This document shows, piece by piece, positions 1 to 13,679 of a stretch of 13,708 nucleotides of DNA. How positions within the stretch are numbered: position 1 is the first letter of the stretch; each line of letters starts with the position of its first letter. The notes under the pieces were generated by a model. That model had not been told where the DNA came from, made no database searches, and saw only the letters and a program-made list of their open reading frames with translations. The stretch is taken from NCBI GenBank assembly GCA_008933525.1, contig WBUV01000037.1, forward strand, positions 1-13,708, written 5' to 3'. This stretch comes from Bacteroidales bacterium. Its GTDB lineage: Bacteria; Bacteroidota; Bacteroidia; Bacteroidales; Tenuifilaceae. Both the position numbers and the translations under genes were made by a program.

Positions 1-476
1 ATACTGGGGCAATTTTTGAGGTTAAAGCTACCGATGCTGAGATTGGCAGTATTTGTGGTGGTGGCCGCTACGATGACCTAACTGGTATTTTCGGGTTGAA
101 GAACGTTAGTGGCGTTGGAGTTTCGTTTGGTGCCGACCGAATTTACGATGTAATGCTTCAGCTATATCTGTTCCCCGAAAGCTTGCTTTCATCAACCCAG
201 GTAATGTTTGCCAACTTCAGCAGTAAGGAGGCAGCCTACTGTCTTAAAGCAATTCGTGAACTGCGCAATGCTGGGGTGAGCGCTGAGCTATACCCCGATT
301 CTGCCAAAATGAAAAAACAGTTCGATTACGCCAATAGCCGTAAAATAAAATTTGTGGTGATTGCTGGTGAAAACGAGGTTCAAAACAATCAGCTTTCGGT
401 TAAAAATATGGAAACAGGCGAACAGGTTTCCATTGCGTACTCCGAAATATCAAACTACATCAAGAAAAATATCTAA
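1..476 (+). CDS. hisS: Histidine--tRNA ligase, C-terminal part (5' end outside window)
   Basis: This is the last 157 codons of histidyl-tRNA synthetase, the cytoplasmic class II enzyme that charges tRNA-His with histidine. The frame is open from base 3 and ends at TAA 474-476; the start lies before the window. The first residues (TGAIFEV) are what follows the HisA1 'RGLDYY' motif. GGGRYDDL is the HisA2 motif, and GVGVSFGADRI is class II motif 3 with its ATP-binding Arg. The remaining roughly 100 residues form the anticodon-binding domain (FANFSSKEAA, ELYPDSAKMKKQ, FVVIAGENE). The hutH start follows after 15 bases with no terminator between, so the two genes are probably cotranscribed. Nothing in the visible part looks damaged. 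The family assignment is secure. Confidence 0.96.
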   Translation, partial: TGAIFEVKATDAEIGSICGGGRYDDLTGIFGLKNVSGVGVSFGADRIYDVMLQLYLFPESLLSSTQVMFANFSSKEAAYCLKAIRELRNAGVSAELYPDSAKMKKQFDYANSRKIKFVVIAGENEVQNNQLSVKNMETGEQVSIAYSEISNYIKKNI

Positions 477-491
477 AACAAACATAAACCA

Positions 492-1988
492 ATGATTAAG
501 ACACACCAAATATCGCCCAAACCATTAACCTGGGAGTTGATGGACGATTTAATCAACTCGCAGTATAAACTTGAATTATCTAAGGAGTCTGTTGAACTTA
601 TCAGTAAGTGCCGCAACTACCTCGATGCCAAGATGGAGAACGAAAGCACTCCAATTTATGGCATTACAACTGGCTTTGGTTCACTTTGCAACCGCACCAT
701 TTCAAAAGATGAACTTTCGCAATTGCAGAATAACCTTGTGATGTCGCATGCTTGTAGCACTGGCGATGAGGTTGCTCCCGAAATTGTTAAGTTGATGCTT
801 TTCCTAAAAGCACACGCCCTTTCGTTGGGACATTCAGGTGTTCAGGTTGAAACAGTTCAGCGTATTGTCGATTTTTACAATAACGATATTCTCCCTGTGG
901 TTTACGACCGTGGCTCACTAGGGGCATCGGGCGATTTGGCGCCACTTTCAAACCTATTCCTACCATTGATTGGGATGGGTGAGGTTCGTCATAATGGCAA
1001 AATCCGTCCAGCAGAGGATGTTCTGAAAGAAATGAACTGGAAACCCATCGAGCTCCGCTCAAAGGAAGGATTAGCATTACTGAATGGTACTCAGTTTATG
1101 AGTTCTCACGGTGTTTATGCAATGGTCAAAGCCTTCAAGATTGCAAAGATTTCCGACATTATTGGAGCTATTTCGCTTGAGGCTTTCGATGGTAGAATTG
1201 ATCCTTTCCATGCTAACATACAGAATGTTCGTCCACATCAAGGACAAATTGAAACTGCACGTAATCTCAGAAAGATCCTTGAGGGTAGCGAGTTAATTGC
1301 TCGTCCCAAAAAGCACGTACAGGATCCATACTCGTTCCGCTGTATGCCTCAGGTTCACGGAGCATCCAAGGATGCCATTAACTACGTTGCAGGTGTTCTC
1401 TTAACCGAAATAAATTCCGTTACCGATAACCCAACCATCTGGCCCGATGAGGATTTAATTATCTCAGGTGGAAATTTCCATGGTCAACCACTAGCCATAA
1501 CTTACGATTTTCTGGCAATTGCCCTTGCAGAGTTGGCAAATATCTCAGAGCGCCGAACGGCTCAGTTGATTCTAGGCTTACGAGGACTTCCAGAATTTTT
1601 AGTGGCAAACCCAGGGTTAAATTCAGGTTTCATGATTCCACAGTATGCTGCAGCAGCAATGGTAAGCCAAAACAAGCAACTATGCACACCAGCATCGGTC
1701 GATTCAATTGTTTCGTCGAACGGACAGGAAGACCATGTAAGCATGGGCGCCAATGCTGCAACAAAGTTACTTAGAGTGATCGATAACGTTGAACGAATAC
1801 TAGCCATTGAACTTTTTGATGCTGCACAAGCGTTGGAGTTCCGTCGCCCAGCAAAATCATCACCATATATCGAGGAGTTTATAGCGGATTACCGTCAAAT
1901 TGTACCTTTTGTTAAAATAGACAAGATAATGTACAAGGAGATGGACAAAACCGTTGAGTTTATCCGTCAAGGAAAATTTGAGCGATAG
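492..1988 (+). CDS. hutH: Histidine ammonia-lyase (histidase)
   Basis: Histidase removes ammonia from L-histidine to give trans-urocanate, the first step of histidine degradation in the cytoplasm. The 498-residue length fits the family (about 500). Ala145-Ser146-Gly147 in GASGDLAPL is the triad that cyclises to the MIO electrophile. Other active-site residues known from the family are present: Tyr56 (YGITTGFG), His86 (SHACSTG), Asn198 (LLNGTQ), Gln277, Tyr280 and Arg283 (VQDPYSFR), and Glu413 (NGQEDHVSM). Ser-His at 85-86 is the histidase form of the substrate-selectivity site, unlike phenylalanine or tyrosine lyases, so histidine is the likely substrate. The ATG lies 15 bases after hisS, and a strong terminator follows the stop by 17 bases. 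No hutU, hutI or formiminotransferase gene is in the window, so the rest of the pathway must be elsewhere or absent. Confidence 0.93.
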   Translation: MIKTHQISPKPLTWELMDDLINSQYKLELSKESVELISKCRNYLDAKMENESTPIYGITTGFGSLCNRTISKDELSQLQNNLVMSHACSTGDEVAPEIVKLMLFLKAHALSLGHSGVQVETVQRIVDFYNNDILPVVYDRGSLGASGDLAPLSNLFLPLIGMGEVRHNGKIRPAEDVLKEMNWKPIELRSKEGLALLNGTQFMSSHGVYAMVKAFKIAKISDIIGAISLEAFDGRIDPFHANIQNVRPHQGQIETARNLRKILEGSELIARPKKHVQDPYSFRCMPQVHGASKDAINYVAGVLLTEINSVTDNPTIWPDEDLIISGGNFHGQPLAITYDFLAIALAELANISERRTAQLILGLRGLPEFLVANPGLNSGFMIPQYAAAAMVSQNKQLCTPASVDSIVSSNGQEDHVSMGANAATKLLRVIDNVERILAIELFDAAQALEFRRPAKSSPYIEEFIADYRQIVPFVKIDKIMYKEMDKTVEFIRQGKFER

Positions 1989-2005
1989 TGTAAATGATAT
2001 CAAAG

Positions 2006-2036
2006 AAAATCCTCGGCATAACCGAGGATTTTTTAT
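2006..2036. terminator. Intrinsic terminator after hutH, probably bidirectional
   Basis: The 11-base arms AAAATCCTCGG (2006-2016) and CCGAGGATTTT (2022-2032) pair perfectly around a 5-base loop, followed by TTATTT. Read on the minus strand the stem is followed by TTTTCTTT. The hairpin sits between two convergent genes, so it can end both the hisS-hutH transcript and the SiaC-like gene, whose stop codon lies immediately beside it at 2037. Confidence 0.92.
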
Positions 2037-2444
2037 TTAGTTTATTTCGAGAAGTTCAATTGGTAGTTTAATTATTTGTTTTAAGTCACGGCCCCAATCG
2101 CGCATATCGGTATCATCTGATTCGTAATGGCAAATAATTTCAACGTTTAAGCCTTTAGCATACAGTTCCTCTAAACGTTTCAGCAAGGCTCCTAGGTAAT
2201 GCTCAGAGCAACCATTAACAAAGGTTAGATAAAAGTGGACAGTTAATTTAGACGGGTTGTACTCGGTAGTATAAACTTGAAACCATCTTAGTATTGGGGA
2301 GAAAAATGATTTTGGATCGCTGGGTATTAGATTTCCGATCATTGCAATTTCACCAGAATTAATCGAACACCTAACTTCGGGGGTCTCAGTTGTTGCAGGG
2401 ATATGTAGGTCGATTAAATCAACAAGGTTTTCACTTTCAATCAT
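2037..2444 (-). CDS. SiaC/DUF1987-family regulatory phosphoprotein-like protein
   Basis: This 135-residue protein matches the SiaC (DUF1987) family. Residues 14-22 (HIPATTETP) correspond to the 'HIPGT..TP' start of SiaC, GEIAMIGNLIPSDP (31-44) to its 'G.l.m.G.syPe' strand, and FFSPILRWF to its first helix. The middle strand and C-terminal 'KLPIELLEI' also follow the family pattern. In Pseudomonas, SiaC is an STAS-like protein that is phosphorylated and dephosphorylated by SiaB and SiaA and activates the diguanylate cyclase SiaD. Here the segment aligned with the SiaC phosphosite 'YLNTSS' reads FVNGCS (75-80), so Gly78 takes the place of the phosphorylated Thr. No kinase, phosphatase or GGDEF gene is nearby. 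The gene is alone, with a possible -7 box 25 bases upstream. The family call is fairly sure; the function is not. Confidence 0.78.
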   Translation of the reverse strand: MIESENLVDLIDLHIPATTETPEVRCSINSGEIAMIGNLIPSDPKSFFSPILRWFQVYTTEYNPSKLTVHFYLTFVNGCSEHYLGALLKRLEELYAKGLNVEIICHYESDDTDMRDWGRDLKQIIKLPIELLEIN

Positions 2445-2468
2445 AACTCAAAAATAAATTAACGGCAA

Positions 2469-2476
2469 CAAATGTA
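2469..2476 (-). promoter_or_regulatory. Possible Bacteroidota -7 box for the SiaC-like gene
   Basis: On the minus strand this reads TACATTTG, matching the TAnnTTTG -7 element of the Bacteroidota housekeeping sigma factor. It would start RNA roughly 10-20 bases before the ATG at 2444. No TTTG element lies at the usual spacing upstream, so only half of the promoter is seen. Confidence 0.4.
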
Positions 2477-2490
2477 AAAAAAAGTTAAAA

Positions 2491-2507
2491 TGGAACTAGG
2501 TTTTCCA
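2491..2507 (-). terminator. Weak hairpin plus T-run after the CpxP-like gene
   Basis: On the minus strand, 5-base arms TGGAA and TTCCA flank a 7-base loop, followed by TTTTAAC and a run of eight T. It lies 21 bases past the stop of the CpxP-like gene. The stem is short and the T-run is offset, so it could be a poor terminator or chance. If it does not stop RNA polymerase, the stress operon would read into the SiaC-like gene. Confidence 0.35.
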
Positions 2508-2527
2508 AAAATATTTGACGATTAAAT

Positions 2528-2989
2528 TTACTTCTTTTCTTCTTTGCCCGATTCCTTTACCTTTTGCAAAAGATACCCTTTAAATTCGTAGTTAGACTGA
2601 TACAGTAGCATTATTTTTTTTGGCGACAGAATTGTTTTAAGTCTAGTATTGAACTCGGCTAAAAGTTCTGTTTCCTGCCTATGTGAATTAACGTAACGGT
2701 TGGTATAGTTTACTATGTCTGCATCGGAAAGTTTGTCGCTCTCCTTCAAAAACTCTTCCACAAACTTTCTACGTTCCGATAGAATTGTATTTTTTCTATC
2801 CCAGTACTCGTCGTAAATTGGCCAAAATAGTTTTGCCTCGTCGGGTGTAAGCTCCAACTTTTTAGTAAGAAAGGCAACCTTTTCTGCTTTAAGAGCCTTC
2901 TCATTATCGGTTTTAGTTGTTTGGGCCGATAACGAAAAACTTATGGCAAAAAACAGAAAAACACCAACTATTCTACAAACTGCTTTCAT
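2528..2989 (-). CDS. Secreted CpxP/Spy-like (LTXXQ-type) protein of an ECF sigma operon
   Basis: This 153-residue protein is predicted to be periplasmic. It has a basic start and a hydrophobic segment (residues 8-21), with likely signal-peptide cleavage after SLSA before QTTK. The mature part is almost all charged helix. It contains LTPDEAKLFWPIYDEY (residues 47-62), the Bacteroidota form of the CpxP/Spy 'LTxxQ' helix, and a second repeat-like turn at LSPKKIMLLYQ. CpxP and Spy relatives are small periplasmic chaperones or metal-stress sensors that bind misfolded protein or modulate a sensor partner. Its ATG overlaps the stop of the anti-sigma gene by 4 bases (ATGA), so the two are translationally coupled, and the sigma factor lies first in the same operon. 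I infer that it modulates or responds to the anti-sigma factor. The ligand is unknown. Confidence 0.8.
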   Translation of the reverse strand: MKAVCRIVGVFLFFAISFSLSAQTTKTDNEKALKAEKVAFLTKKLELTPDEAKLFWPIYDEYWDRKNTILSERRKFVEEFLKESDKLSDADIVNYTNRYVNSHRQETELLAEFNTRLKTILSPKKIMLLYQSNYEFKGYLLQKVKESGKEEKK

Positions 2990-3447
2990 GGCTGAATTTC
3001 CTTTTTCTCATCAATTATGGTAATACAATTATTGCTTCGAATATAGTATCGATGGTACATTTCGCGTGTAGCCTCATTAATTGTATCCTGCTTCTTTCTA
3101 TTTTCAATGGAACGATATAGGTCAATATCTTCAAAGTCAGAAATACTGCGACTCACAATCTCTACATAGTCTGTGCCAACATGTCTGGAGTTATGCTGAC
3201 TTACTGGACGAGATAAATAATAACCAAAGTATGCTATTACTGCCATAAAGGCAAAACCAGCAGCAAAAGCAAGCTGTGAGCGAAAAGTTACAACCCAACC
3301 ACCATTTTCTGTAACGGTTTCTGAAGCAGAGGTTTCGGCTTGTATTCGTGCTTGAATCTTTGCTGGCAAATTATCAAAATAACCATCAGGAACAGAGAAT
3401 GGTAACTCTCGTCCTGCTTTAAACTCTATTTTTTCCTTCTCACTCAT
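2986..3447 (-). CDS. Single-pass membrane anti-sigma factor, non-zinc type
   Basis: This is a roughly 153-residue protein with one central membrane segment (about 57-78, rich in Phe, Ala and Tyr) that separates a cytoplasmic N-terminus from a periplasmic C-terminus. The N-terminal PFSVPDGYFDNLPAKIQARI matches the short helix found at the start of many Bacteroidota anti-sigma factors ('VPxGYFxNLPxkIxxRI'). The HxxxCxxC zinc motif of the ZAS family is absent. The periplasmic half is charged and has no recognised domain. I chose ATG at 3447 over the in-frame GTG at 3450 immediately before it. The sigma gene ends 47 bases upstream, and the CpxP-like gene starts inside this stop codon. Gene order (sigma, membrane protein, secreted protein) is the main evidence that it holds the sigma factor inactive. 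Confidence 0.75.
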   Translation of the reverse strand: MSEKEKIEFKAGRELPFSVPDGYFDNLPAKIQARIQAETSASETVTENGGWVVTFRSQLAFAAGFAFMAVIAYFGYYLSRPVSQHNSRHVGTDYVEIVSRSISDFEDIDLYRSIENRKKQDTINEATREMYHRYYIRSNNCITIIDEKKEIQP

Positions 3448-3494
3448 CACTACTGATGTTTTCTAAATTTATGATGGTATTATATCAACAAGGT

Positions 3495-4043
3495 TTAATC
3501 CTCTTCCAAAAATTTCTCTATTTTTTTTACTGCATGATGAAATGATGCCTTAAGCGCACCCACCGACGTTCCCAACACATCCGACATATCCTCGTACTTC
3601 ATTTCGTCATAATACTTCATATTGAAGACTATTCTTTGCTTTTCGGGCAGTTTCAATATAGCTTGTTGAAGTTTAATTTGCAGTTCATCGCCATCAATAT
3701 GAGGATCGCTCTCAAGTGTTTTACACAATTGTTGTTCCACATCCACTAATGGCAGTAAAAATTTTGTTTTCTTTTTCTTTAAAAAAGTCAATGCTTCGTT
3801 AGTAGCTATGCGATATAGCCATGTAAACAACTGAGAATCTTCACGAAACGACTCCAGACCACCCCATACTTTTAGAAAGGTGTTCTGGATAACATCGTCG
3901 GTATCGTCGTGGCTAATTACTATTTTGCGAATGTGCCAGTAAAGGCGTTCCTGATACTTCCGCATAAGCAGATTAAATGCGTAGTTTTTTGTTTCGCAAT
4001 TGCGAAACATTTCCAGCAGTTCCCTGTCGGAATAACTATTCAT
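3495..4043 (-). CDS. ECF sigma factor (RpoE-like) with adjacent anti-sigma
   Basis: This 182-residue protein has the two-domain layout of extracytoplasmic-function sigma factors. Region 2 (about 24-92) holds DDTDDVIQNTFLKVWGGL and FTWLYRIATNEALTFLKKKK, for -10 recognition and core binding. Region 4 (about 124-178) holds LKLPEKQRIVFNMKYYDEMKYEDMS followed by the helix-turn-helix GTSVGALKASFHHAV, for -35 recognition. It should direct RNA polymerase to envelope-stress promoters once released by the membrane anti-sigma encoded next. Its ATG lies 18 bases after the transketolase C-subunit stop with no terminator between, and I see no housekeeping -7 box upstream, so it is either read from the transketolase operon or driven by its own ECF promoter. 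The family is certain; the regulon is unknown. Confidence 0.92.
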   Translation of the reverse strand: MNSYSDRELLEMFRNCETKNYAFNLLMRKYQERLYWHIRKIVISHDDTDDVIQNTFLKVWGGLESFREDSQLFTWLYRIATNEALTFLKKKKTKFLLPLVDVEQQLCKTLESDPHIDGDELQIKLQQAILKLPEKQRIVFNMKYYDEMKYEDMSDVLGTSVGALKASFHHAVKKIEKFLEED

Positions 4044-4061
4044 TCAATCGTTGGATTTAAT

Positions 4062-5012
4062 TTATTTTCTGGCAATTGCCTTTAGTGCTGCATCTACAAT
4101 ATTTGGAGTATCCAAACCATATTTAACCATAAGATCGGTTGGAGTACCACTCTCGCCAAACATATCGTTCACGGCCACCATCTCCAGTGGAGTTGGTAAT
4201 TTGCGTGCAAGAACCTGAGCAATGCTATCGCCTAAACCACCATTCATCATGTGTTCCTCGGCCGAAACTGCACAACGTGTTTTGCTAACCGAACGGATAA
4301 TTGCTTCTTCGTCCAAAGGTTTTATGGTGTGTATATTGATAACCTCGGCGGAGATTCCTTTTTCTGCAAGAATATCGGCGGCTTCCAGTGCTTTCCACAC
4401 TAAGTGTCCTGTAGCAAAAATTGAAACCTGACTTCCTTCCTGAAGCGTAATTGCTTTACCAATTACAAACTCTTGGTCGGCTGGGGTAAAGTTTGGAACG
4501 GCAGGACGACCAAATCGTAGATAAACAGGTCCAATATGCTTTGCAATAGCCAATGTAGCGGCCTTTGTTTGATTATAATCGCAAGGGTTAATAACCACCA
4601 TATTGGGAAGCATTTTCATCAATCCCAAATCTTCCATCATTTGGTGGGTGGCTCCATCTTCTCCTAACGTTAAACCTGCATGCGATGCGCAAATCTTAAC
4701 ATTCTTGTTGGAGTAAGCAACGCTTTGGCGGATTTGGTCGTAAACACGTCCTGTTGCAAAGGCTGCAAATGTTCCCGCAAAAGGTATTTTACCGCCAATG
4801 GTTAAACCAGCAGCCATTCCAATCATATTTGCCTCGGCAATACCAGTTTGAACGAAACGCTCAGGGAAGTCCTTAACAAAATCGTCCATTTTAAGCGAGC
4901 CAATTAAATCAGCGCAAAGTGCAACAACGTCTGAGTTAGATTTTCCAAGTTCGTAAAGTCCAGCACCAAAGCCTGAACGAGTATCTTTGTTTCCAGTTGA
5001 AGTATATTTCAT
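4062..5012 (-). CDS. tkt: Transketolase, C-terminal subunit (pyrimidine-binding and C-terminal domains)
   Basis: This is the second half of a two-gene transketolase, which moves two-carbon ketol units between sugar phosphates in the non-oxidative pentose phosphate pathway using thiamine diphosphate. The 316-residue length fits split C subunits. Glu60 in TGIAEANMIGMAAGL is the Glu that activates the cofactor's aminopyrimidine ring. PFAGTFAAFATGRVYDQIRQS and ASHAGLTLGEDGATHQ (from about 77 and 109) are the conserved PYR-domain segments. The C-terminal domain starts near 185, with HTIKPLD and AEEHMMNGGLGD following. The gene starts 13 bases after the methylglyoxal-synthase-like gene and is in the same operon as the N subunit. 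The relative 1-deoxyxylulose-5-phosphate synthase is a single chain and less like this; specialised split transketolases acting on unusual sugars cannot be excluded. Confidence 0.92.
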   Translation of the reverse strand: MKYTSTGNKDTRSGFGAGLYELGKSNSDVVALCADLIGSLKMDDFVKDFPERFVQTGIAEANMIGMAAGLTIGGKIPFAGTFAAFATGRVYDQIRQSVAYSNKNVKICASHAGLTLGEDGATHQMMEDLGLMKMLPNMVVINPCDYNQTKAATLAIAKHIGPVYLRFGRPAVPNFTPADQEFVIGKAITLQEGSQVSIFATGHLVWKALEAADILAEKGISAEVINIHTIKPLDEEAIIRSVSKTRCAVSAEEHMMNGGLGDSIAQVLARKLPTPLEMVAVNDMFGESGTPTDLMVKYGLDTPNIVDAALKAIARK

Positions 5013-5025
5013 TGTGTAATAAGTC

Positions 5026-5424
5026 TTAAGCGTTACGTTTCATTCTTTCCATTGCTTCCTTGCGAATCTGACCAATTATTACAAGTTCAGCTGTTGCCTG
5101 ATTGGTTGCAAGTGGTATATTGTTTACGTTACAAGCCTCGAGTAGATGGCGAATATCCTCGTGGTGTGCTTGAACCACTTTGTGGTCGCGAAGGAAAATT
5201 ACGATATCAACCTCGCCCTTTTCAATCATACTGGTAATCTCATTGTAACCACCATATTGTCCTTGACTAAGGTGTCGACATTTAATTCCCTGCTCCTCAA
5301 TGAATTCTGCAGTTCTTCCAGTTGCAAGTAAATTAACACCAGGCAACCACTCTTCGTGCTCTTTAAGGAACTTAACCAGCTCAGGTTTTTTTGCATCGTG
5401 TGCAATTACTGCAATATTTTTCAT
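5026..5424 (-). CDS. Methylglyoxal-synthase-like protein with altered active site
   Basis: This 132-residue protein follows methylglyoxal synthase (MgsA) along its whole length: IAVIAHDAKK at the start, LLATGRTAEFI, GEVDIVIFLRD, then NIPLATNQATAEL. MgsA converts dihydroxyacetone phosphate to methylglyoxal and phosphate. Aligned by memory with the E. coli and B. subtilis enzymes, His9, Asp10, Lys13, Thr35, Thr38, Asp80, His87 and Asp90 are kept. The segment SGPxGGDQQ, however, reads SQGQYGGYNE, so the catalytic base Asp71 is Tyr60, the phosphate-binding Ser65 is Gln, and Thr47 is Arg37. Canonical activity is therefore doubtful. The same fold serves as an allosteric domain in carbamoyl-phosphate synthetase. 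The gene sits between the two transketolase halves, 28 bases after one and 13 before the other. I infer a sugar-phosphate-binding or regulatory role, or a different lyase. An annotation pipeline would probably call it mgsA. Confidence 0.8.
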   Translation of the reverse strand: MKNIAVIAHDAKKPELVKFLKEHEEWLPGVNLLATGRTAEFIEEQGIKCRHLSQGQYGGYNEITSMIEKGEVDIVIFLRDHKVVQAHHEDIRHLLEACNVNNIPLATNQATAELVIIGQIRKEAMERMKRNA

Positions 5425-5452
5425 CTTTTTTGATCGTTAAAGATTCATCAAA

Positions 5453-6298
5453 CTAAAAATCACCAATAGTTTCGGGTAATTGAGCCATTGCCTTCTCAAA
5501 CTCTTCGTTACTTGGGGCTTTTCCATGCCATTTATGAGTTCCCATCATAAAATCGACACCCATACCCATTTCGGTCTTCATAAGAATCACTACTGGCTTT
5601 CCTTTCCCTGTAAGGTTTTTGGCCTCAACAAAAGCTTTTAAGAGTTGCGCCATATCATTACCATCAGTTTCTACAACATCCCAACCAAACGATAACCATT
5701 TTAGCTTTAAATCACCTAGAGTAACAACTGAATCTACAGGTCCATCTATTTGTTTACCGTTATAGTCAACGGTTGCAATTAGATTGTCAATTTTCTTTGC
5801 AGCGGCAAAAAGAACAGCTTCCCAGATTTGACCCTCCTGCAACTCACCATCACCGTGTAAGGTGTAGATTAAACTCTTGTCACCATTGAGTTTCTTTGCT
5901 AAAGCAGCGCCACACGCTACCGACAAACCTTGTCCTAGCGAACCTGATGCTATTCTAATTCCTGGCAAATGTTCGGCTGGAGTTGGATGGCCTTGCAACC
6001 TTGAATCGATTAGTCGAAATGTAGAAAGTTCTTTCACATCGAAGTAACCACGGCGGGCAAGAACACTATACCAAACTGCTGAAAGGTGTCCGTTTGATAA
6101 GAAAAACAAATCCTCACCTGCTCCATCCATGGAGAACTTTTGCGGATTGATGTTTAGCACATCAAAGTAAAGTGCAGTGAAAAAATCAGCACATCCTAAA
6201 GAACCACCAGGATGGCCACTTGCTGGTTTATGTACCATACGAATTACATCGCGGCGAACCTGCGCTGCAATCTTCTTAAGATTTTCAATATCAGTCAT
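5453..6298 (-). CDS. tkt: Transketolase, N-terminal subunit (TPP-binding domain)
   Basis: This is the first half of the split transketolase, carrying the diphosphate-binding domain of thiamine diphosphate. Residues 148-180 hold the family's cofactor motif: HGDGELQEGQIWE, then about 30 residues later VDYN. The substrate- and cofactor-binding histidines are seen in SGHPGG (His29), GHPTP (His104) and THKWHGKAP near the end. The 281-residue length is normal for a separate N subunit. It must pair with the product at 4062-5012 to form an active site. It is the first gene of the operon, with a near-consensus promoter ending about 34 bases upstream. The next gene is the methylglyoxal-synthase-like one rather than the C subunit, which is unusual for a pair needed in equal amounts. 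Confidence 0.93.
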   Translation of the reverse strand: MTDIENLKKIAAQVRRDVIRMVHKPASGHPGGSLGCADFFTALYFDVLNINPQKFSMDGAGEDLFFLSNGHLSAVWYSVLARRGYFDVKELSTFRLIDSRLQGHPTPAEHLPGIRIASGSLGQGLSVACGAALAKKLNGDKSLIYTLHGDGELQEGQIWEAVLFAAAKKIDNLIATVDYNGKQIDGPVDSVVTLGDLKLKWLSFGWDVVETDGNDMAQLLKAFVEAKNLTGKGKPVVILMKTEMGMGVDFMMGTHKWHGKAPSNEEFEKAMAQLPETIGDF

Positions 6299-8475: not shown

Positions 8476-8493
8476 TAGGGTATTTTTAGGGTA
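8476..8493 (+). repeat. Tandem TAGGGTA direct repeat upstream of gene A
   Basis: TAGGGTA occurs at 8476-8482 and again at 8487-8493, 11 bases apart, about one helical turn. It is in the 100-base leader of the secreted protein gene at 8551, where no TAnnTTTG housekeeping -7 box is present. It could be an operator or part of an alternative-sigma promoter. Chance is also possible in such AT-rich DNA. Confidence 0.4.
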
Positions 8494-8550
8494 AAGTATC
8501 ATAATAGCAAAACAACAAAAATGCTGTTAAATTTTTAAACTGATATAACT

Positions 8551-9819
8551 ATGAAAACACTATCGAACATTATCAGAAAAAGCCTAAAGATATCAGCTGT
8601 GGCTATTGCCATGCTTATCTCGGCTTCAGTTATTGGTCAAGAGGCCGATTTCCACACAATTAATGGTGTAATTAAGGATTCCAAAACAAAAGAACGAGTT
8701 GTATTTGGAAACGTGTCGGTTCCAGGAACCAATATTGGAACAGTTGCAAACTCGGATGGACAGTTTACAATTAAGATTCCAAAATCGCTAAACATCAAAG
8801 AATTTGAGATTTCGCATCTTGGTTATCAAAACAAAAAATTTGCGATAACTGAAAATGGAAAATCAGAACAAACATTTCTAATTGATGCTGCCTCAGTAGA
8901 ACTTAAAGGAGTAGTTGTTCGCCCAGAGGATCCACGAATGATTGTTAGCCAAGCAATAAACAAAATTGGAACAAACTACAGCAACCACTCAAGTACACTT
9001 ACCGGATTCTACCGCGAAACTATTAAGCAGCGAAAAGATTACATTTCTATTGCAGAAGCTGTTACAGAAATTTACAAAACTCCCTACGATTTCACACTAG
9101 AATCGGATAAGGTAAAAATTCTAAAAGGACGTAAAGGTAGCAATGTGAAAAAAGCCGATACTCTAATGGTTAAAATGCAAGGTGGCCCACATGTATCATT
9201 ATACCTCGACCTTGTGAAATACCCCGATCTACTTCTAAGCAGCGAGGAAATCTACAATTACGACTATGAAATTGTTGACATGGTAAGCCTCGACAATGAA
9301 CCAAACTACGTTATTTCGTTCAAACCAAGAGTACAGTTAGAATATCCTCTTTACTCAGGTAAACTTTACATAGCAGTAGAAAGTCTAGCCGTAACAATGG
9401 CAGAATTCAGCCTCGATATTAGCGATGTTGATAAAGCCACTCGGATTTTTGTAAAGAAAAAACCTACTGGCTTAAGATTCGAGCCACAAAGCACTAGTTA
9501 TCTTGTTACTTACAAAAAACAAGGCGACAAGTACTTCCTTAACTATATGCGTAACGAGATTAAATTCAGAGCCGACTGGCGAAGAAAGATTTTCCAAACC
9601 ACATACACAGTTATGTCCGAAATGGTTATAACCGAGCGTAAAACTGAAAATATTGATAAGATAAGCGCAAAGGAATCGTTCCGTCCATACGCAGTGCTTG
9701 CCGACAGAGTTAACGAATACTTTGATGAAAACTACTGGGGTGCATACAACACAATTGAGCCCGATGAGTCTATACAATCTGCAATTAACAAATTCAACCG
9801 CAGGTTCAAGAAGCAATAA
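8551..9819 (+). CDS. Secreted CarboxypepD_reg-like protein 'A' (FYRE family), paralogue of 11505-13085
   Basis: This is a 422-residue exported protein. Residues 1-29 form a signal peptide ending near VIG before Q30, with no lipobox Cys. Residues 36-112 form a CarboxypepD_reg-like beta-sandwich (HTINGVIKDSKTKERVVFGNVSV, NSDGQFTIKIP, ISHLGYQNK) of the type found at the start of SusC-like receptors. Here no TonB plug or barrel follows. The remaining 300 residues are an unnamed conserved region with a central GFYRE motif (152-156), DTLMVKMQGG, a beta-rich stretch with LYSGKLYIAVESLAVTMAEF (267-286), and WRRKIFQTTYTVMSE. The same motifs occur in the same order in the protein at 11505-13085, which adds an STN domain. 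A terminator separates this gene from the sigma gene downstream. The role is unknown; it is probably periplasmic or attached to the outer membrane, and linked to the signalling operon beside it. Confidence 0.78.
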   Translation: MKTLSNIIRKSLKISAVAIAMLISASVIGQEADFHTINGVIKDSKTKERVVFGNVSVPGTNIGTVANSDGQFTIKIPKSLNIKEFEISHLGYQNKKFAITENGKSEQTFLIDAASVELKGVVVRPEDPRMIVSQAINKIGTNYSNHSSTLTGFYRETIKQRKDYISIAEAVTEIYKTPYDFTLESDKVKILKGRKGSNVKKADTLMVKMQGGPHVSLYLDLVKYPDLLLSSEEIYNYDYEIVDMVSLDNEPNYVISFKPRVQLEYPLYSGKLYIAVESLAVTMAEFSLDISDVDKATRIFVKKKPTGLRFEPQSTSYLVTYKKQGDKYFLNYMRNEIKFRADWRRKIFQTTYTVMSEMVITERKTENIDKISAKESFRPYAVLADRVNEYFDENYWGAYNTIEPDESIQSAINKFNRRFKKQ

Positions 9820-9839: not shown

Positions 9840-9870
9840 AAGGCAAAGGGATAACCCCCTTTGCCTTTTG
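9840..9870 (+). terminator. Intrinsic terminator between gene A and the FecI-like sigma gene
   Basis: The 11-base perfect arms AAGGCAAAGGG (9840-9850) and CCCTTTGCCTT (9857-9867) enclose a 6-base loop and are followed by a short T tract. The 3' arm also contains the TTTG sequences that could act as the -33 element of the next promoter, so terminator and promoter overlap. Confidence 0.88.
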
Positions 9871-9915: not shown

Positions 9916-10464
9916 ATGGGTTTTTCGGACTTACATAAGCAGGGCAGAATTAAGCAAAACGACCTTAGTGAATTTGAGGAACTTTTTAAAAGTTACTACA
10001 ACCCGCTCTGTAATTATGTTTATTCAATAGTAAAGGATAAGGATCAGTCCGAGGAAATTGTTCAAGAGTTCTTTTACAACTACTGGAAAAACCGAAAGGA
10101 AATTAGCATAAAGCTATCGCTCAAGGCTTATATTTACAGATCGGTTAGGAATAGTGCTATAAGGTATTTGCAGCATAAACAAATTGAACAAAAATACCTA
10201 AACAATTTGCATTCCGAGGATCTTGTTACATCACCATCGCTTACAATGGAATACAGTGAGATGAATGAAGTTGTGGAGTCAACACTATCGCAACTACCCG
10301 AGCGATGCCGACAAATATTCGAACTGAGTCGATACAATGGTTTAAAGTACCATGAAATTGCCGATCTCCTTTCAATATCGGTTAAAACAGTAGAAGCGGA
10401 CATGTCCAAGGCATTGTTTACTTTTAGGCAGAACCTTGGGAAATTAGGAATAAATACTCATTGA
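9916..10464 (+). CDS. FecI-like ECF sigma factor (Bacteroides expansion family type)
   Basis: This is a 182-residue sigma-70 factor of the FecI-like expansion common in Bacteroidota. Region 2 (about 20-88) includes FEELFKSYYNPLCNYVYSIVKD, SEEIVQEFFYNYWKNR and the AIRYLQHKQIEQKYL helix typical of this group. Region 4 (about 118-172) includes LSQLPERCRQIFELSRYNGLKYHE and a helix-turn-helix at LLSISVKTVEADMSKAL. It precedes a FecR anti-sigma gene by 37 bases. In the known systems, FecR releases the sigma factor when an outer-membrane receptor is occupied, and the sigma then transcribes the receptor genes. Which promoters this one reads is unknown; the gene A upstream region and the operon itself are candidates. 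Confidence 0.94.
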   Translation: MGFSDLHKQGRIKQNDLSEFEELFKSYYNPLCNYVYSIVKDKDQSEEIVQEFFYNYWKNRKEISIKLSLKAYIYRSVRNSAIRYLQHKQIEQKYLNNLHSEDLVTSPSLTMEYSEMNEVVESTLSQLPERCRQIFELSRYNGLKYHEIADLLSISVKTVEADMSKALFTFRQNLGKLGINTH

Positions 10465-10501
10465 AACTGATATCATTTTAACTCTTTTGATTTTTTAGAA
10501 C

Positions 10502-11512
10502 ATGGAAAGCAATAGCAATACATCAGCAAATCACCTCAGAGTAACACGATATATAACAGGTGAAATGACCATACTCGAAAAGTTTTGGTTCGAAAGGATA
10601 ATTGCTATAAATCCTGCAATGAAAAGTACCATAAACACAATGAAGAAGGATTGGGATTCAATTGGAGAAAGTTTAACAATGAAAGATTTTAATTCAAATA
10701 AGGCTTGGAGCAATTTATACCATAGATTTGAGCAGGAGCAACTACTCCCAGAGAAAAATTCAATTTCGTTTAAATTTGTTCCGCAGCAATACTTAAAGTA
10801 TGCGGCAATAATTCTTTTTGCTGTTATTCTTTCGGGTGTAGGGGGGTACAAGTATTTCAACCCAGAACTAAAACAGTTGGCGAACAACTCAAACAATAAT
10901 ACCATAATCGCCACTCTTCCCGATGGAACATCCATTTACCTTGCTCAAAATTCGACACTTACTTACCCTTCGCGTTTTGTTGGAGGAAAACGAAAAGTAA
11001 AACTTGATGGTGAAGCGTACTTCGAAGTTGCAAAAAATCCAAAAAAATCGTTTATCATTGAAACAAAAGCAGCATCAGTTCAAGTAATTGGAACCTCGTT
11101 TAACCTCAAATCAACCAATTCCGAAAACTTTGAGCTTAAAGTTGTTGAAGGAAAGGTGGGCGTAAACCTAAATGCAAACCCTAGCGAAAGTCTTATTGCA
11201 GTTGCTGGCGATGTTGTTATGGCCAATAACAAAAAACTTATTAAGGACAGAATCTCAAATATTATCACCACCAAGAATAGAATGATTCGCTTGCAGTTTC
11301 AGGACGAAAACCTGGAGAGCATCATTAATGTCATAAATAAACACTACAATTCCAACTTGAAACTAGACGGAGAGGAACTAAAGAATAGAAATATTTCAGT
11401 TACATTTGAGAATGATTTAAGTAGTATAGTAAACATTCTTTCGGTTTCGCTTAATCTCGAATTGATTCGCCAACCCGATAGTACAATCATACTTAAAGAA
11501 AAACATGAATAG
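10502..11512 (+). CDS. FecR-family transmembrane anti-sigma factor with DUF4974-like C-terminus
   Basis: This 336-residue inner-membrane protein controls the sigma factor encoded just before it. The cytoplasmic N-terminus (1-95) contains the short sigma-binding helix region (LRVTRYITGEMTILEKFWFE). One membrane segment (about 99-117) follows. The periplasmic FecR domain (about 135-222) has the family signatures ATLPDGTSIYLAQNSTLTYPSRF, VKLDGEAYFEVAKNPKKSF and VIGTSFNLKS. The last 70 residues (LQFQDENLESIINVINKHYN, ISVTFENDLSSIVNILS) match DUF4974, which has an STN-like fold and is where signal is thought to be received. Its last 8 bases overlap the start of the STN-containing gene B, so the two are translationally coupled. 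All parts expected of a working FecR are present. Confidence 0.93.
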   Translation: MESNSNTSANHLRVTRYITGEMTILEKFWFERIIAINPAMKSTINTMKKDWDSIGESLTMKDFNSNKAWSNLYHRFEQEQLLPEKNSISFKFVPQQYLKYAAIILFAVILSGVGGYKYFNPELKQLANNSNNNTIIATLPDGTSIYLAQNSTLTYPSRFVGGKRKVKLDGEAYFEVAKNPKKSFIIETKAASVQVIGTSFNLKSTNSENFELKVVEGKVGVNLNANPSESLIAVAGDVVMANNKKLIKDRISNIITTKNRMIRLQFQDENLESIINVINKHYNSNLKLDGEELKNRNISVTFENDLSSIVNILSVSLNLELIRQPDSTIILKEKHE

Positions 11513-13085
11513 GCAAAACGCCTACAGATTCCTTCCATTTCCATTAAACAACAAATGGATACTCCTGTTTTTGATGATAGGATTATCGTTAGGTGCTTAC
11601 TCGCAGCAACGCGACTCTCTGCTAAGTAAACCTATCACAATAAACATAAAAGGAGCAACGGTTTACCAAGCTTTAAACCAAATTGGCGATTTAGCCGACT
11701 GTTTTTTTATATACGATAGTAAGGATGTAAAAAGCGATAAAAAAGTTCAATCCCTTGAGGTAACCAACAAACCTCTCATCGATATTCTAAATCAACTACT
11801 ATCCGATCCAGCAATTGACTATAAAGTAATAGACAAGCACATTCTTATTTTTCGAAACGAATTAAACCAAAAAAAAACAACTGTTGAAGTAGCTGACTCT
11901 TCAGGTTTTATTACAATTGGAGGAGTTATTTACGATAAGGACACAAAAAGCCCAATTCCCTTCTCCACTGTAGTAATCGAAAAGTTGGGACTTGGAACTA
12001 TCTCAAACTTTGAAGGGTTATTTTACCTAAGAATACCTAAAAAGTTCGCTAAAACAAACATTATTGTTTCTCACTTGGGCTACGAAAACCTGTCGGTTCC
12101 AATTGAAATGCTGGAAGGAAAAACCTACAAGTTGTATATCCAGCCTCGCTACATCCCAATACAGGAGGTATTTATCAGGAATATTGATGCCAAAGGAATT
12201 GTAAAATCGGCCATAGAAAATAAAGATATAAACTACTATAACTCGAACATTTACCTAACAAGCTTTTACAGAGAGGGTGTAAAGCGAAACAACAAGTACC
12301 TAGGTTATAGCGAGGCTGTTTTCAAAATATTTAAATCGTCGTACCAGACAGGAACGGAATTCGACCAAGTAAGACTTTTAAAGTCAAGAAAAATTGAACT
12401 TTCCGAACGAAGCGATACACTTGTAGTTAAACTTAAGGCTGGAATTAAAGGGGCAATAGATCTGGACATAGTCAAGAGTATGCCCGACTTTCTCGATCCA
12501 GAATTCATGGACAACTATATCTACACAAAAAATGACATTATTTCACACGATTCTCGAAGTGCATATGTTATTAACTTCGAACAAAAACCAAACATATATC
12601 AACCTCTTTTCTCAGGGACCATATACATAGATGTTGAGAAATTAACCATTCTGGGCGCTGATTTCGGAATTAACCCAAAATATGTTGAAACTTCTGCAAA
12701 TCTGTTTGTGCTGAAGAAGGATCGAAAAATAACTGTAAAGCCAGAAAATATTTGGTATTCCGTAAAATACAGGCAATGGAATGGAAGATATTACATTTAC
12801 CATGCCCGGGGTGATTTATCTTTCAATGTAAAGGAGCGCCGAAAGTTATTCTCCAACACTTACAGCCTATTCCTTGAGTATGTCGGATTTCAAATAGATA
12901 CTCTTAATGTTGAACGTTTTACACGAAGAGACATTTTGCGACCAAACATTGTTTTCTCCGAAGAAAACTACACCTACGACTCCGAGTTCTGGAAAGATCT
13001 AAACTTTATTTCGCCCGAAGAGGATATTAACAAAGCGATATCTAAGATTAATTTAAAGATTGAAAGTATTGAGAACGAACAATAA
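11505..13085 (+). CDS. STN + CarboxypepD_reg-like secreted protein 'B' without TonB barrel (FYRE family)
   Basis: This 526-residue exported protein starts inside the fecR stop region (8-base overlap). A hydrophobic segment at 17-33 ends in AYSQ and acts as signal peptide; there is no lipobox. Residues 43-116 form an STN domain (ITINIKGATVYQALNQIGDL, FFIYDSKD, LIDILNQLL), the domain by which TonB-dependent receptors contact FecR. Residues 136-215 form a CarboxypepD_reg-like domain (GGVIYDKDTKSPIPFSTVVI, ISNFEGLFYLRIP, VSHLGYENL). A SusC-like receptor would then have a plug and a 22-strand barrel of over 600 residues. This protein has only about 310 more, collinear with gene A (SFYRE 253-257, DTLVVKLKAG, LFSGTIYIDVEKLTILGADF, ERRKLFSNTYSLF). 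A terminator follows at once. I infer that it is the signal-giving partner of FecR; what it senses is unknown. Confidence 0.82.
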   Translation: MNRQNAYRFLPFPLNNKWILLFLMIGLSLGAYSQQRDSLLSKPITINIKGATVYQALNQIGDLADCFFIYDSKDVKSDKKVQSLEVTNKPLIDILNQLLSDPAIDYKVIDKHILIFRNELNQKKTTVEVADSSGFITIGGVIYDKDTKSPIPFSTVVIEKLGLGTISNFEGLFYLRIPKKFAKTNIIVSHLGYENLSVPIEMLEGKTYKLYIQPRYIPIQEVFIRNIDAKGIVKSAIENKDINYYNSNIYLTSFYREGVKRNNKYLGYSEAVFKIFKSSYQTGTEFDQVRLLKSRKIELSERSDTLVVKLKAGIKGAIDLDIVKSMPDFLDPEFMDNYIYTKNDIISHDSRSAYVINFEQKPNIYQPLFSGTIYIDVEKLTILGADFGINPKYVETSANLFVLKKDRKITVKPENIWYSVKYRQWNGRYYIYHARGDLSFNVKERRKLFSNTYSLFLEYVGFQIDTLNVERFTRRDILRPNIVFSEENYTYDSEFWKDLNFISPEEDINKAISKINLKIESIENEQ

Positions 13086-13139: not shown

Positions 13140-13679
13140 TTAGAAGTAGAAGTTCAACCCACCTCCAATAAGATGATACGCTGGATCGGTAAGGCCAATC
13201 TCTGCCTCAAGAATAAAACTCATATTCTTTTTAATGCCAATATCTAAGCCCACTGGTAACCATAGCAAAAATTGGGTTTCTGGCTCTGTAAAATTTACAT
13301 CAAGATCTAATCCAGAAAACAAACGAACCCCACTTTTTATTGGAATAGTAAAGTTAAGAGTTCCATCCAGCCCAAAAACTCCAAAATCGTGAGCACCAAC
13401 AGCAAGAGAAATTCTTTTAGCAATAGCAAACTCAACATCAGCACCAATGTAAGTTTCTGGGCCAAGTACCCCAACGTTTAATCCGAAGTCAATGCCACTC
13501 CTTAACCCATAACCACCATGCAGAAAAAGCATAAACTCATTGCTGCCGTTAATTAGAACCGCTGGCTCGAATCCAACGCTAAAAGTTTTGGCTTTCAAGG
13601 TTTGGCCTGTGTTGAAAACTTGACCGAATGAAAACTGTGTTAGAATAACCAACAATGGTATAATAAAAAGTTTTTTCAT
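13140..13679 (-). CDS. Small outer-membrane beta-barrel-like protein
   Basis: This 179-residue protein has a clear signal peptide (MKKLFIIPLLVILTQFSFG, cleaved before Q20). The mature part consists of short amphipathic strands alternating polar and hydrophobic or aromatic residues with Gly-rich turns (FSVGFEPAVLI, FLHGGYGL, GIDFGLNVGVLG, YIGADVEFAIA), and it ends in GGGLNFYF, the C-terminal aromatic pattern recognised by the BAM machinery. I count roughly eight likely strands, so a small closed barrel is plausible. There is no named family that I recognise and no OmpA-type peptidoglycan-binding domain. The gene is convergent with the signalling operon and is followed on its 3' side by the shared terminator. 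Only a few bases upstream of the ATG are in the window, so its promoter is not visible. Confidence 0.75.
   Translation of the reverse strand: MKKLFIIPLLVILTQFSFGQVFNTGQTLKAKTFSVGFEPAVLINGSNEFMLFLHGGYGLRSGIDFGLNVGVLGPETYIGADVEFAIAKRISLAVGAHDFGVFGLDGTLNFTIPIKSGVRLFSGLDLDVNFTEPETQFLLWLPVGLDIGIKKNMSFILEAEIGLTDPAYHLIGGGLNFYF

What the first reader, a model, noticed from the sequence alone, without database searches (positions are those of the whole stretch)
9916..13085. FecI/FecR signalling operon whose STN partner has no TonB receptor barrel
The sequence shows fecI, fecR and gene B in one operon, with fecR and B overlapping by 8 bases. B carries an STN domain (43-116) and a CarboxypepD_reg-like domain but ends after about 310 further residues, with no TonB plug and no room for a 22-strand barrel. 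In known Fec-type systems the STN domain of a TonB-dependent receptor passes the signal to FecR. Here the signal input must be something else, held by the unnamed FYRE region. It may be a barrel-less form of cell-surface signalling.
Basis: partly seen in the sequence, partly recalled or inferred. Interest (0 to 1): 0.72.

Follow-up and report, generated by a model that had tools for sequence, protein, structure and literature searches.

The report
Barrel-less Fec switch with LolA-like sensor
Some Bacteroidales bacteria carry a four-gene switch in which the contact module of an iron-uptake receptor is joined to a domain that looks like a lipid carrier instead of an outer-membrane channel; it may watch the state of the cell envelope and switch on a twin of its own sensor.

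The parts
8476..8503 (+). ECF-type promoter motif TAGGGTA-N16-TCATA, 47 bases before the ATG of A; likely target of the cassette's own sigma factor
   Evidence: Strict motif before 40 of 46 A genes, and before 0 of 46 fecI, 0 of 48 fecR, 0 of 49 B; slightly stricter form 38 of 45, shuffled 0.015 per set; position-blind scan of 21 genomes has A as next gene in 12
8551..9819 (+). gene A: CarboxypepD_reg-like + LolA/RseB-like protein (422 aa) with signal-peptide-like start, STN-less paralogue of B, likely sigma-dependent output
   Evidence: cassette conservation
9842..9869 (+). terminator-like hairpin between A and fecI (9-pair perfect stem, then TTTT)
   Evidence: sequence and -16.6 kcal/mol fold; not listed by the stricter consensus scan
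9916..10464 (+). fecI: ECF sigma factor, Bacteroidetes subfamily TIGR02985
10502..11512 (+). fecR: sigma regulator with FecR and FecR_C domains
11505..13085 (+). gene B: STN + CarboxypepD_reg-like + LolA/RseB-like putative sensor, 526 aa, no TonB plug or barrel
11631..11855 (+). STN domain of B (residues 43-117)
11916..12149 (+). CarboxypepD_reg-like (SusC NTE-type) domain of B (residues 138-215)
12168..12935 (+).

Best explanation
A self-contained envelope-sensing switch of four genes. B is exported to the periplasm. Its STN domain docks on the STN-like C-terminal domain of FecR, as the signalling domains of FoxA and PupB dock on FoxR and PupR, and shields FecR from proteolysis. Its second half, a LolA/RseB-type half-barrel, binds an amphipathic ligand (a lipid, part of LPS, or a lipoprotein on its way to the outer membrane), much as MucB does. 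Ligand binding changes or breaks the B-FecR contact, FecR is cut, and the FecI-like sigma factor is freed. It then transcribes gene A from TAGGGTA-N16-TC[AT]TA, and in this genus perhaps also a retropepsin-PDZ protein and a PD40 propeller protein. A, the same two domains without STN, would be the working carrier or buffer for that ligand and would lower the signal again. Shown by sequence: domains, gene order, motif and its place. Predicted: the fold. Inferred: export, FecR contact, ligand class, proteolysis, negative feedback.
For: Paralogy of A and B; in a tree of half the loci plus others, all 23 cassette A rows lie on one starred branch that no cassette B row enters, and the STN profile hits 25 of 25 cassette B and 0 of 23 cassette A. 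Cassette: 46 of 51 loci; commonest neighbour family outside it in only 7 of 46 loci. Fold. Weak sequence hints: 2 of 69 FYRE domains match Pfam LolA_like (best E 1.3e-4) and 8 of 69 DUF5686 (best 8.4e-5); in a DUF5686 protein (L179) a sub-threshold LolA_like hit at 245-302 (E 0.0049) falls on the stretch that the FYRE profile hits. Promoter; possible further targets. B has fecR upstream in 16 of 19 B copies even in loci picked for unusual arrangement. Models: FoxA domain protects FoxR from proteolysis (PMC11637429, abstract and first part of Discussion); PupR/PupB complex (PMC7186176, passages); lipid in MucB's cavity leads to MucA cleavage (PMC7400510, abstract and Introduction).
Confidence: 0.52

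Rival explanations
1. Ordinary cell-surface signalling with the receptor encoded elsewhere: a TonB-dependent or SusC-like receptor in the outer membrane contacts B (perhaps through its NTE-type domain), and B only relays to FecR.
Against: No family of neighbours, receptors included, recurs in more than 7 of 46 loci; the repeated gene behind the motif is A; the STN domain, the usual receptor part that meets FecR, is already in B.
Confidence: 0.17
2. Substrate-induced uptake rather than stress: A and B bind a particular imported hydrophobic nutrient or pigment; B senses it and A carries it.
For: A behind the sigma motif parallels fecA under FecI; A-type genes without fec genes beside them occur in other families.
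Against: No transporter or enzyme family recurs widely beside the cassette; the possible extra targets are a retropepsin-PDZ protein and a propeller, which look more like quality control.
Confidence: 0.2
3. B is an outer-membrane protein with a small barrel, a shortened DUF5686-type protein, so 'no barrel' is only 'no TonB barrel'.
Confidence: 0.09

Closest known systems
Fec/Fox/Pup cell-surface signalling (FecI-FecR-FecA)
   Same: FecI-like ECF sigma factor, FecR with FecR_C domain, partner with an N-terminal STN domain, partner-type gene behind a sigma-type promoter motif
   Different: Partner has no plug or barrel; sensor and regulated gene are two paralogues instead of one receptor
RseB/MucB with RseA/MucA and sigma-E/AlgU
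   Same: LolA-type fold (model match) tied to an anti-sigma factor
   Different: Unrelated anti-sigma factor; an STN domain as the likely contact; no sequence match to RseB or MucB chains
LolA/LolB lipoprotein carriers of Bacteroidota
   Different: Only sporadic, weak Pfam match (2 of 69); NTE-type domain in front; own sigma-type promoter
DUF5686 (PF18939) proteins
   Same: CarboxypepD_reg-like domain followed by a segment that the FYRE profile hits (L178, L179)
   Different: The two tested are 703 aa (cut) and 831 aa with a long further part; A and B stop at 422 and 526
[quoted passage not shown]
   Same: Bacteroidota-specific coupling of the envelope to an ECF sigma factor
   Different: Dma is one protein with tether and C-terminal barrel and an ECF21 partner; here FecR plus a separate sensor
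NCBI name 'STN and carboxypeptidase regulatory-like domain-containing protein'
   Same: Name given by a source to homologues of B (P0008, P0100)
   Different: A domain name only, no system or function

Membership tests
Fec-type cell-surface signalling | FecI-like ECF sigma factor | tested here: met
   TIGR02985, 167.9 bits against cut-off 126.4
Fec-type cell-surface signalling | FecR regulator with FecR and C-terminal FecR_C domains | tested here: met
   PF04773 64.6 bits, PF16344 34.8 bits, both over cut-off
Fec-type cell-surface signalling | Partner with N-terminal STN signalling domain | tested here: met
Fec-type cell-surface signalling | Partner is a TonB-dependent receptor with plug and 22-strand barrel | tested here: not met
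   526 aa, no plug or barrel family, half-barrel model instead
Fec-type cell-surface signalling | STN domain physically contacts FecR | not testable with these tools
   single-chain predictions only
RseB/MucB family | LolA-like fold | tested here: met
RseB/MucB family | Sequence relationship to RseB/MucB | tested here: inconclusive
   No PDB sequence matches the FYRE profile at E up to 10
RseB/MucB family | Binds lipid and controls anti-sigma cleavage | not testable with these tools
   needs biochemistry
LolA/LolB carriers | Pfam LolA-type sequence match | tested here: inconclusive
   2 of 69 FYRE domains match LolA_like, best E 1.3e-4; the window's B does not
DUF5686 | Match to PF18939 | tested here: inconclusive
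   8 of 69 FYRE domains match weakly, best E 8.4e-5; the window's whole A and B do not at E up to 1

The most novel reading that the evidence does not exclude
A separate class of Bacteroidota envelope-stress pathway built from Fec parts: the STN domain acts as a plug-in that turns an output protein into a sensor docked on FecR. B is output A plus STN; in two genomes (G383, G485) a retropepsin-PDZ protein with an STN-like start sits between fecR and B, while a form of that protein without this start sits behind the sigma motif in the window's genus. The pathway would sense stalled lipids or lipoproteins through a LolA/RseB-type domain, a convergent counterpart of RseB-DegS-RseA.
Probability: 0.35. 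Interest if true: 0.88.

Novelty: new variant of a known kind. Interest (0 to 1): 0.74.

Why it matters
FecR systems are read as reporters of receptors for siderophores and other substrates. A FecR partner with a lipid-carrier-type domain and no receptor would widen what this anti-sigma family can sense and give Bacteroidota a candidate counterpart of RseB. It also touches an open question: in Flavobacterium johnsoniae some lipoproteins still reach the outer membrane without LolA and LolB (PMC11885536, abstract and passages), and the A-type proteins found here, with or without the fec genes, are further LolA-fold candidates. Sensor and output being twin proteins, with a promoter motif to test, allows direct reporter and knock-out tests.

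Tried and rejected
A three-gene operon as the whole unit: rejected, A belongs to it in most loci.

Motif scans. Own genome with one mismatch: 29 sites against 34 in the reversed control, noise; only exact sites were followed. One search was run with a spacer one base too long by my mistake; it gave one site in each of three congeners and none in 28 other genomes (reversed control: 1). These three sites later proved to lie 77 bases before a retropepsin-PDZ gene. Of 17 loci of that gene that I read, 4 have the motif (G000, G001, G002 and, 62 bases upstream, G493; all four genomes also have A-type genes), 3 in genomes with A or A+B lack it (G504, G327, G521), and 10 in genomes without a match to A/B lack it. 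Three of the four are one genus, so this is suggestive only.

Whether the motif drifts with diverged sigma factors was not tested formally; profile scores of fecI point both ways (G407 diverged with motif, G025 not diverged without).

Literature: no paper on a barrel-less STN partner of FecR stood in the listings of searches; the library holds open-licence papers only, and I read parts of seven (PMC11637429, PMC7186176, PMC7400510, PMC11885536, PMC13088901, PMC9249621, PMC12045153), none whole.

Limits of the counts. The motif was derived from A upstream regions, so the scan is blind to position, not to those genes. One search used B-specific peptide patterns, so 46 of 51 overstates how fixed the order is, 60 of 247 genomes match and, by my count of the listing, 37 have two matches close together on one contig and 23 do not. 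In the 46 loci four have A or B itself cut by a contig end (L027, L056, L060, L061). From the A counts I dropped L205 (372 aa) and L216 (cut), which group with B in the tree.

Full report

The missing gene. Directly upstream, A (8551-9819, 422 aa) aligns to B residues 129-518 with 33% identity over 392 positions and has no STN match. One scan of the species-genome collection with a B profile gave 51 loci. In 46 of them A, fecI, fecR and B stand in this order on one strand; the other five are cut by contig ends before the missing genes. Flanking genes differ from locus to locus: the commonest neighbour family occurs in 7 of 46. A-B identity within one locus averages 32% in the shared domain (28-38%, 42 loci). 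In a tree of 103 domains (every second locus plus other copies) all 23 cassette A rows and 21 further A-type rows lie on one starred branch; the 25 cassette B rows lie outside it, in a 41-row group with weak support (81/72); 12 other A-type rows lie outside both. So the two cassette paralogues separated before these lineages did, but the wider A and B labels are not each one clade. The STN profile finds all 25 cassette B rows and none of the 23 cassette A rows.

Spread and looser forms. In 296 genomes of the phylum 81 have a match at 1e-5; many are frames of about 800-860 aa with partial matches, and the two that I tested are DUF5686 proteins. Strong full-length matches include single A-type genes of 426-476 aa in eight genomes of one family (f18); I saw no fecI, fecR or B beside them except a FecR about 4 kb away in G256. 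In the order, 60 of 247 genomes match at 1e-40; 37 have the pair close together on one contig, 23 do not (my count of that listing). I read the surroundings of those 23 and of G025, G268 and G463. In the loci, B has fecR upstream in 16 of 19 copies, two of them with another gene between. G260 has A alone, near the same gene type that flanks the full cassette of its congener G268, but turned the other way. Five genomes have B with fecI-fecR and no second match at 1e-40 (G350, G383, G408, G485, G507), and five have only an A-type match (G260, G358, G520, G521, G539).

Promoter. Before A lies TAGGGTA-N16-TC[AT]TA (window 8476-8503, 47 bases from the ATG). A strict form occurs before 40 of 46 A genes; the six misses are one cut by the contig end (L015), one with a misplaced start (L040), one with a 17-base spacer (L050), and three near matches (L033, L053, L059). 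The same pattern occurs in 0 of 46, 0 of 48 and 0 of 49 upstream stretches of fecI, fecR and B. A position-blind scan of 21 genomes gave 41 exact sites (reversed control 32); A is the first gene downstream in 12 genomes, and the one other clearly repeated target is a PD40 propeller gene in three congeners (85-92% identical proteins), with a 35% identical propeller in G025. In the looser loci the motif is before 8 of 20 A genes, before fecR in G355, G375 and G478, and before fecI in G408 and G507. Of eight A genes not linked to fecI two carry it (G375, G478, one family) and six do not. The best reading is that this is the cassette's sigma target, with A as main output where the cassette is intact, and that the target has moved or changed in some lineages.

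A second pair. In G383 and G485 a protein with an STN-like start (own STN profile E about 2e-11; Pfam FecR_C and STN below cut-off), two retropepsin-type domains and a PDZ domain lies between fecR and B. In 44 further of 247 genomes of the order a match at 1e-25 covers the protease-PDZ part without that start, one of them in the window's own genome (C248, 414 aa). In the window's genus (three genomes) and in G493 that gene has the motif with a 17-base spacer 62-77 bases upstream; three genomes with A or A+B and ten without lack it. This repeats the A/B pattern: an output protein and an STN-tagged version beside fecR. It rests on few genomes.

How it would work. In Fox signalling the STN domain holds FoxR and protects it from proteolysis until the signal comes (PMC11637429, abstract and first part of Discussion); in PupR/PupB both subdomains of the regulator are needed for the contact (PMC7186176, passages); in MucA/MucB lipid in MucB's cavity lets MucA be cut (PMC7400510, abstract and Introduction). 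B has the first kind of contact domain and the second kind of sensing domain. I therefore propose that B guards FecR and lets go, or shifts, when its cavity is filled, and that A, made by the freed sigma factor, carries or soaks up the same ligand. Export, contact, ligand and proteolysis are inference.

Novelty. Homologues of B carry a domain name from NCBI, but no paper on the system stood in the listings of ten searches (open-licence library only). I file it as a new variant of Fec-type signalling because the defining receptor is absent while sigma factor, FecR and STN partner are present.

Noticed in passing
L071 (own genome C379) 353-5775: A second barrel-less STN protein beside a FecR: fecR, then a 606-aa STN + CarboxypepD_reg-like protein with GVQVAGV-type repeats, then a 792-aa protein with a CarboxypepD_reg-like domain that by eye looks like a TonB receptor.
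   Followed up: partly
L210 6223-7788 (-) and L211 2588-4156 (+): Protein with STN-like start, two retropepsin-type domains and PDZ between fecR and B; candidate FecR-linked protease, seen in two genomes of one family.
   Followed up: partly
L232 1623-2944 (own genome C248): Retropepsin-PDZ gene without the STN-like start, with the 17-base-spacer form of the motif 77 bases upstream; same in two congeners with different neighbours.
   Followed up: yes
L106 190-1359 (own genome C308): PD40 propeller gene with an exact motif 143 bases upstream, conserved in two congeners.
   Followed up: partly
window 2528-4043 (-): A different ECF sigma factor (3495-4043) followed by a possible membrane-anchored protein (2986-3450) and a small secreted-looking protein (2528-2989): perhaps a second signalling operon (by eye).
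   Followed up: no
window 13140-13679 (-): Secreted-looking 179-aa protein without a Pfam match, with relatives next to B in only two of the 46 loci (L011, L013).
   Followed up: no
L191, L192, L203 before fecR; L208, L209 before fecI: In some families the same motif lies inside or before the fec operon, suggesting autoregulation.
   Followed up: partly
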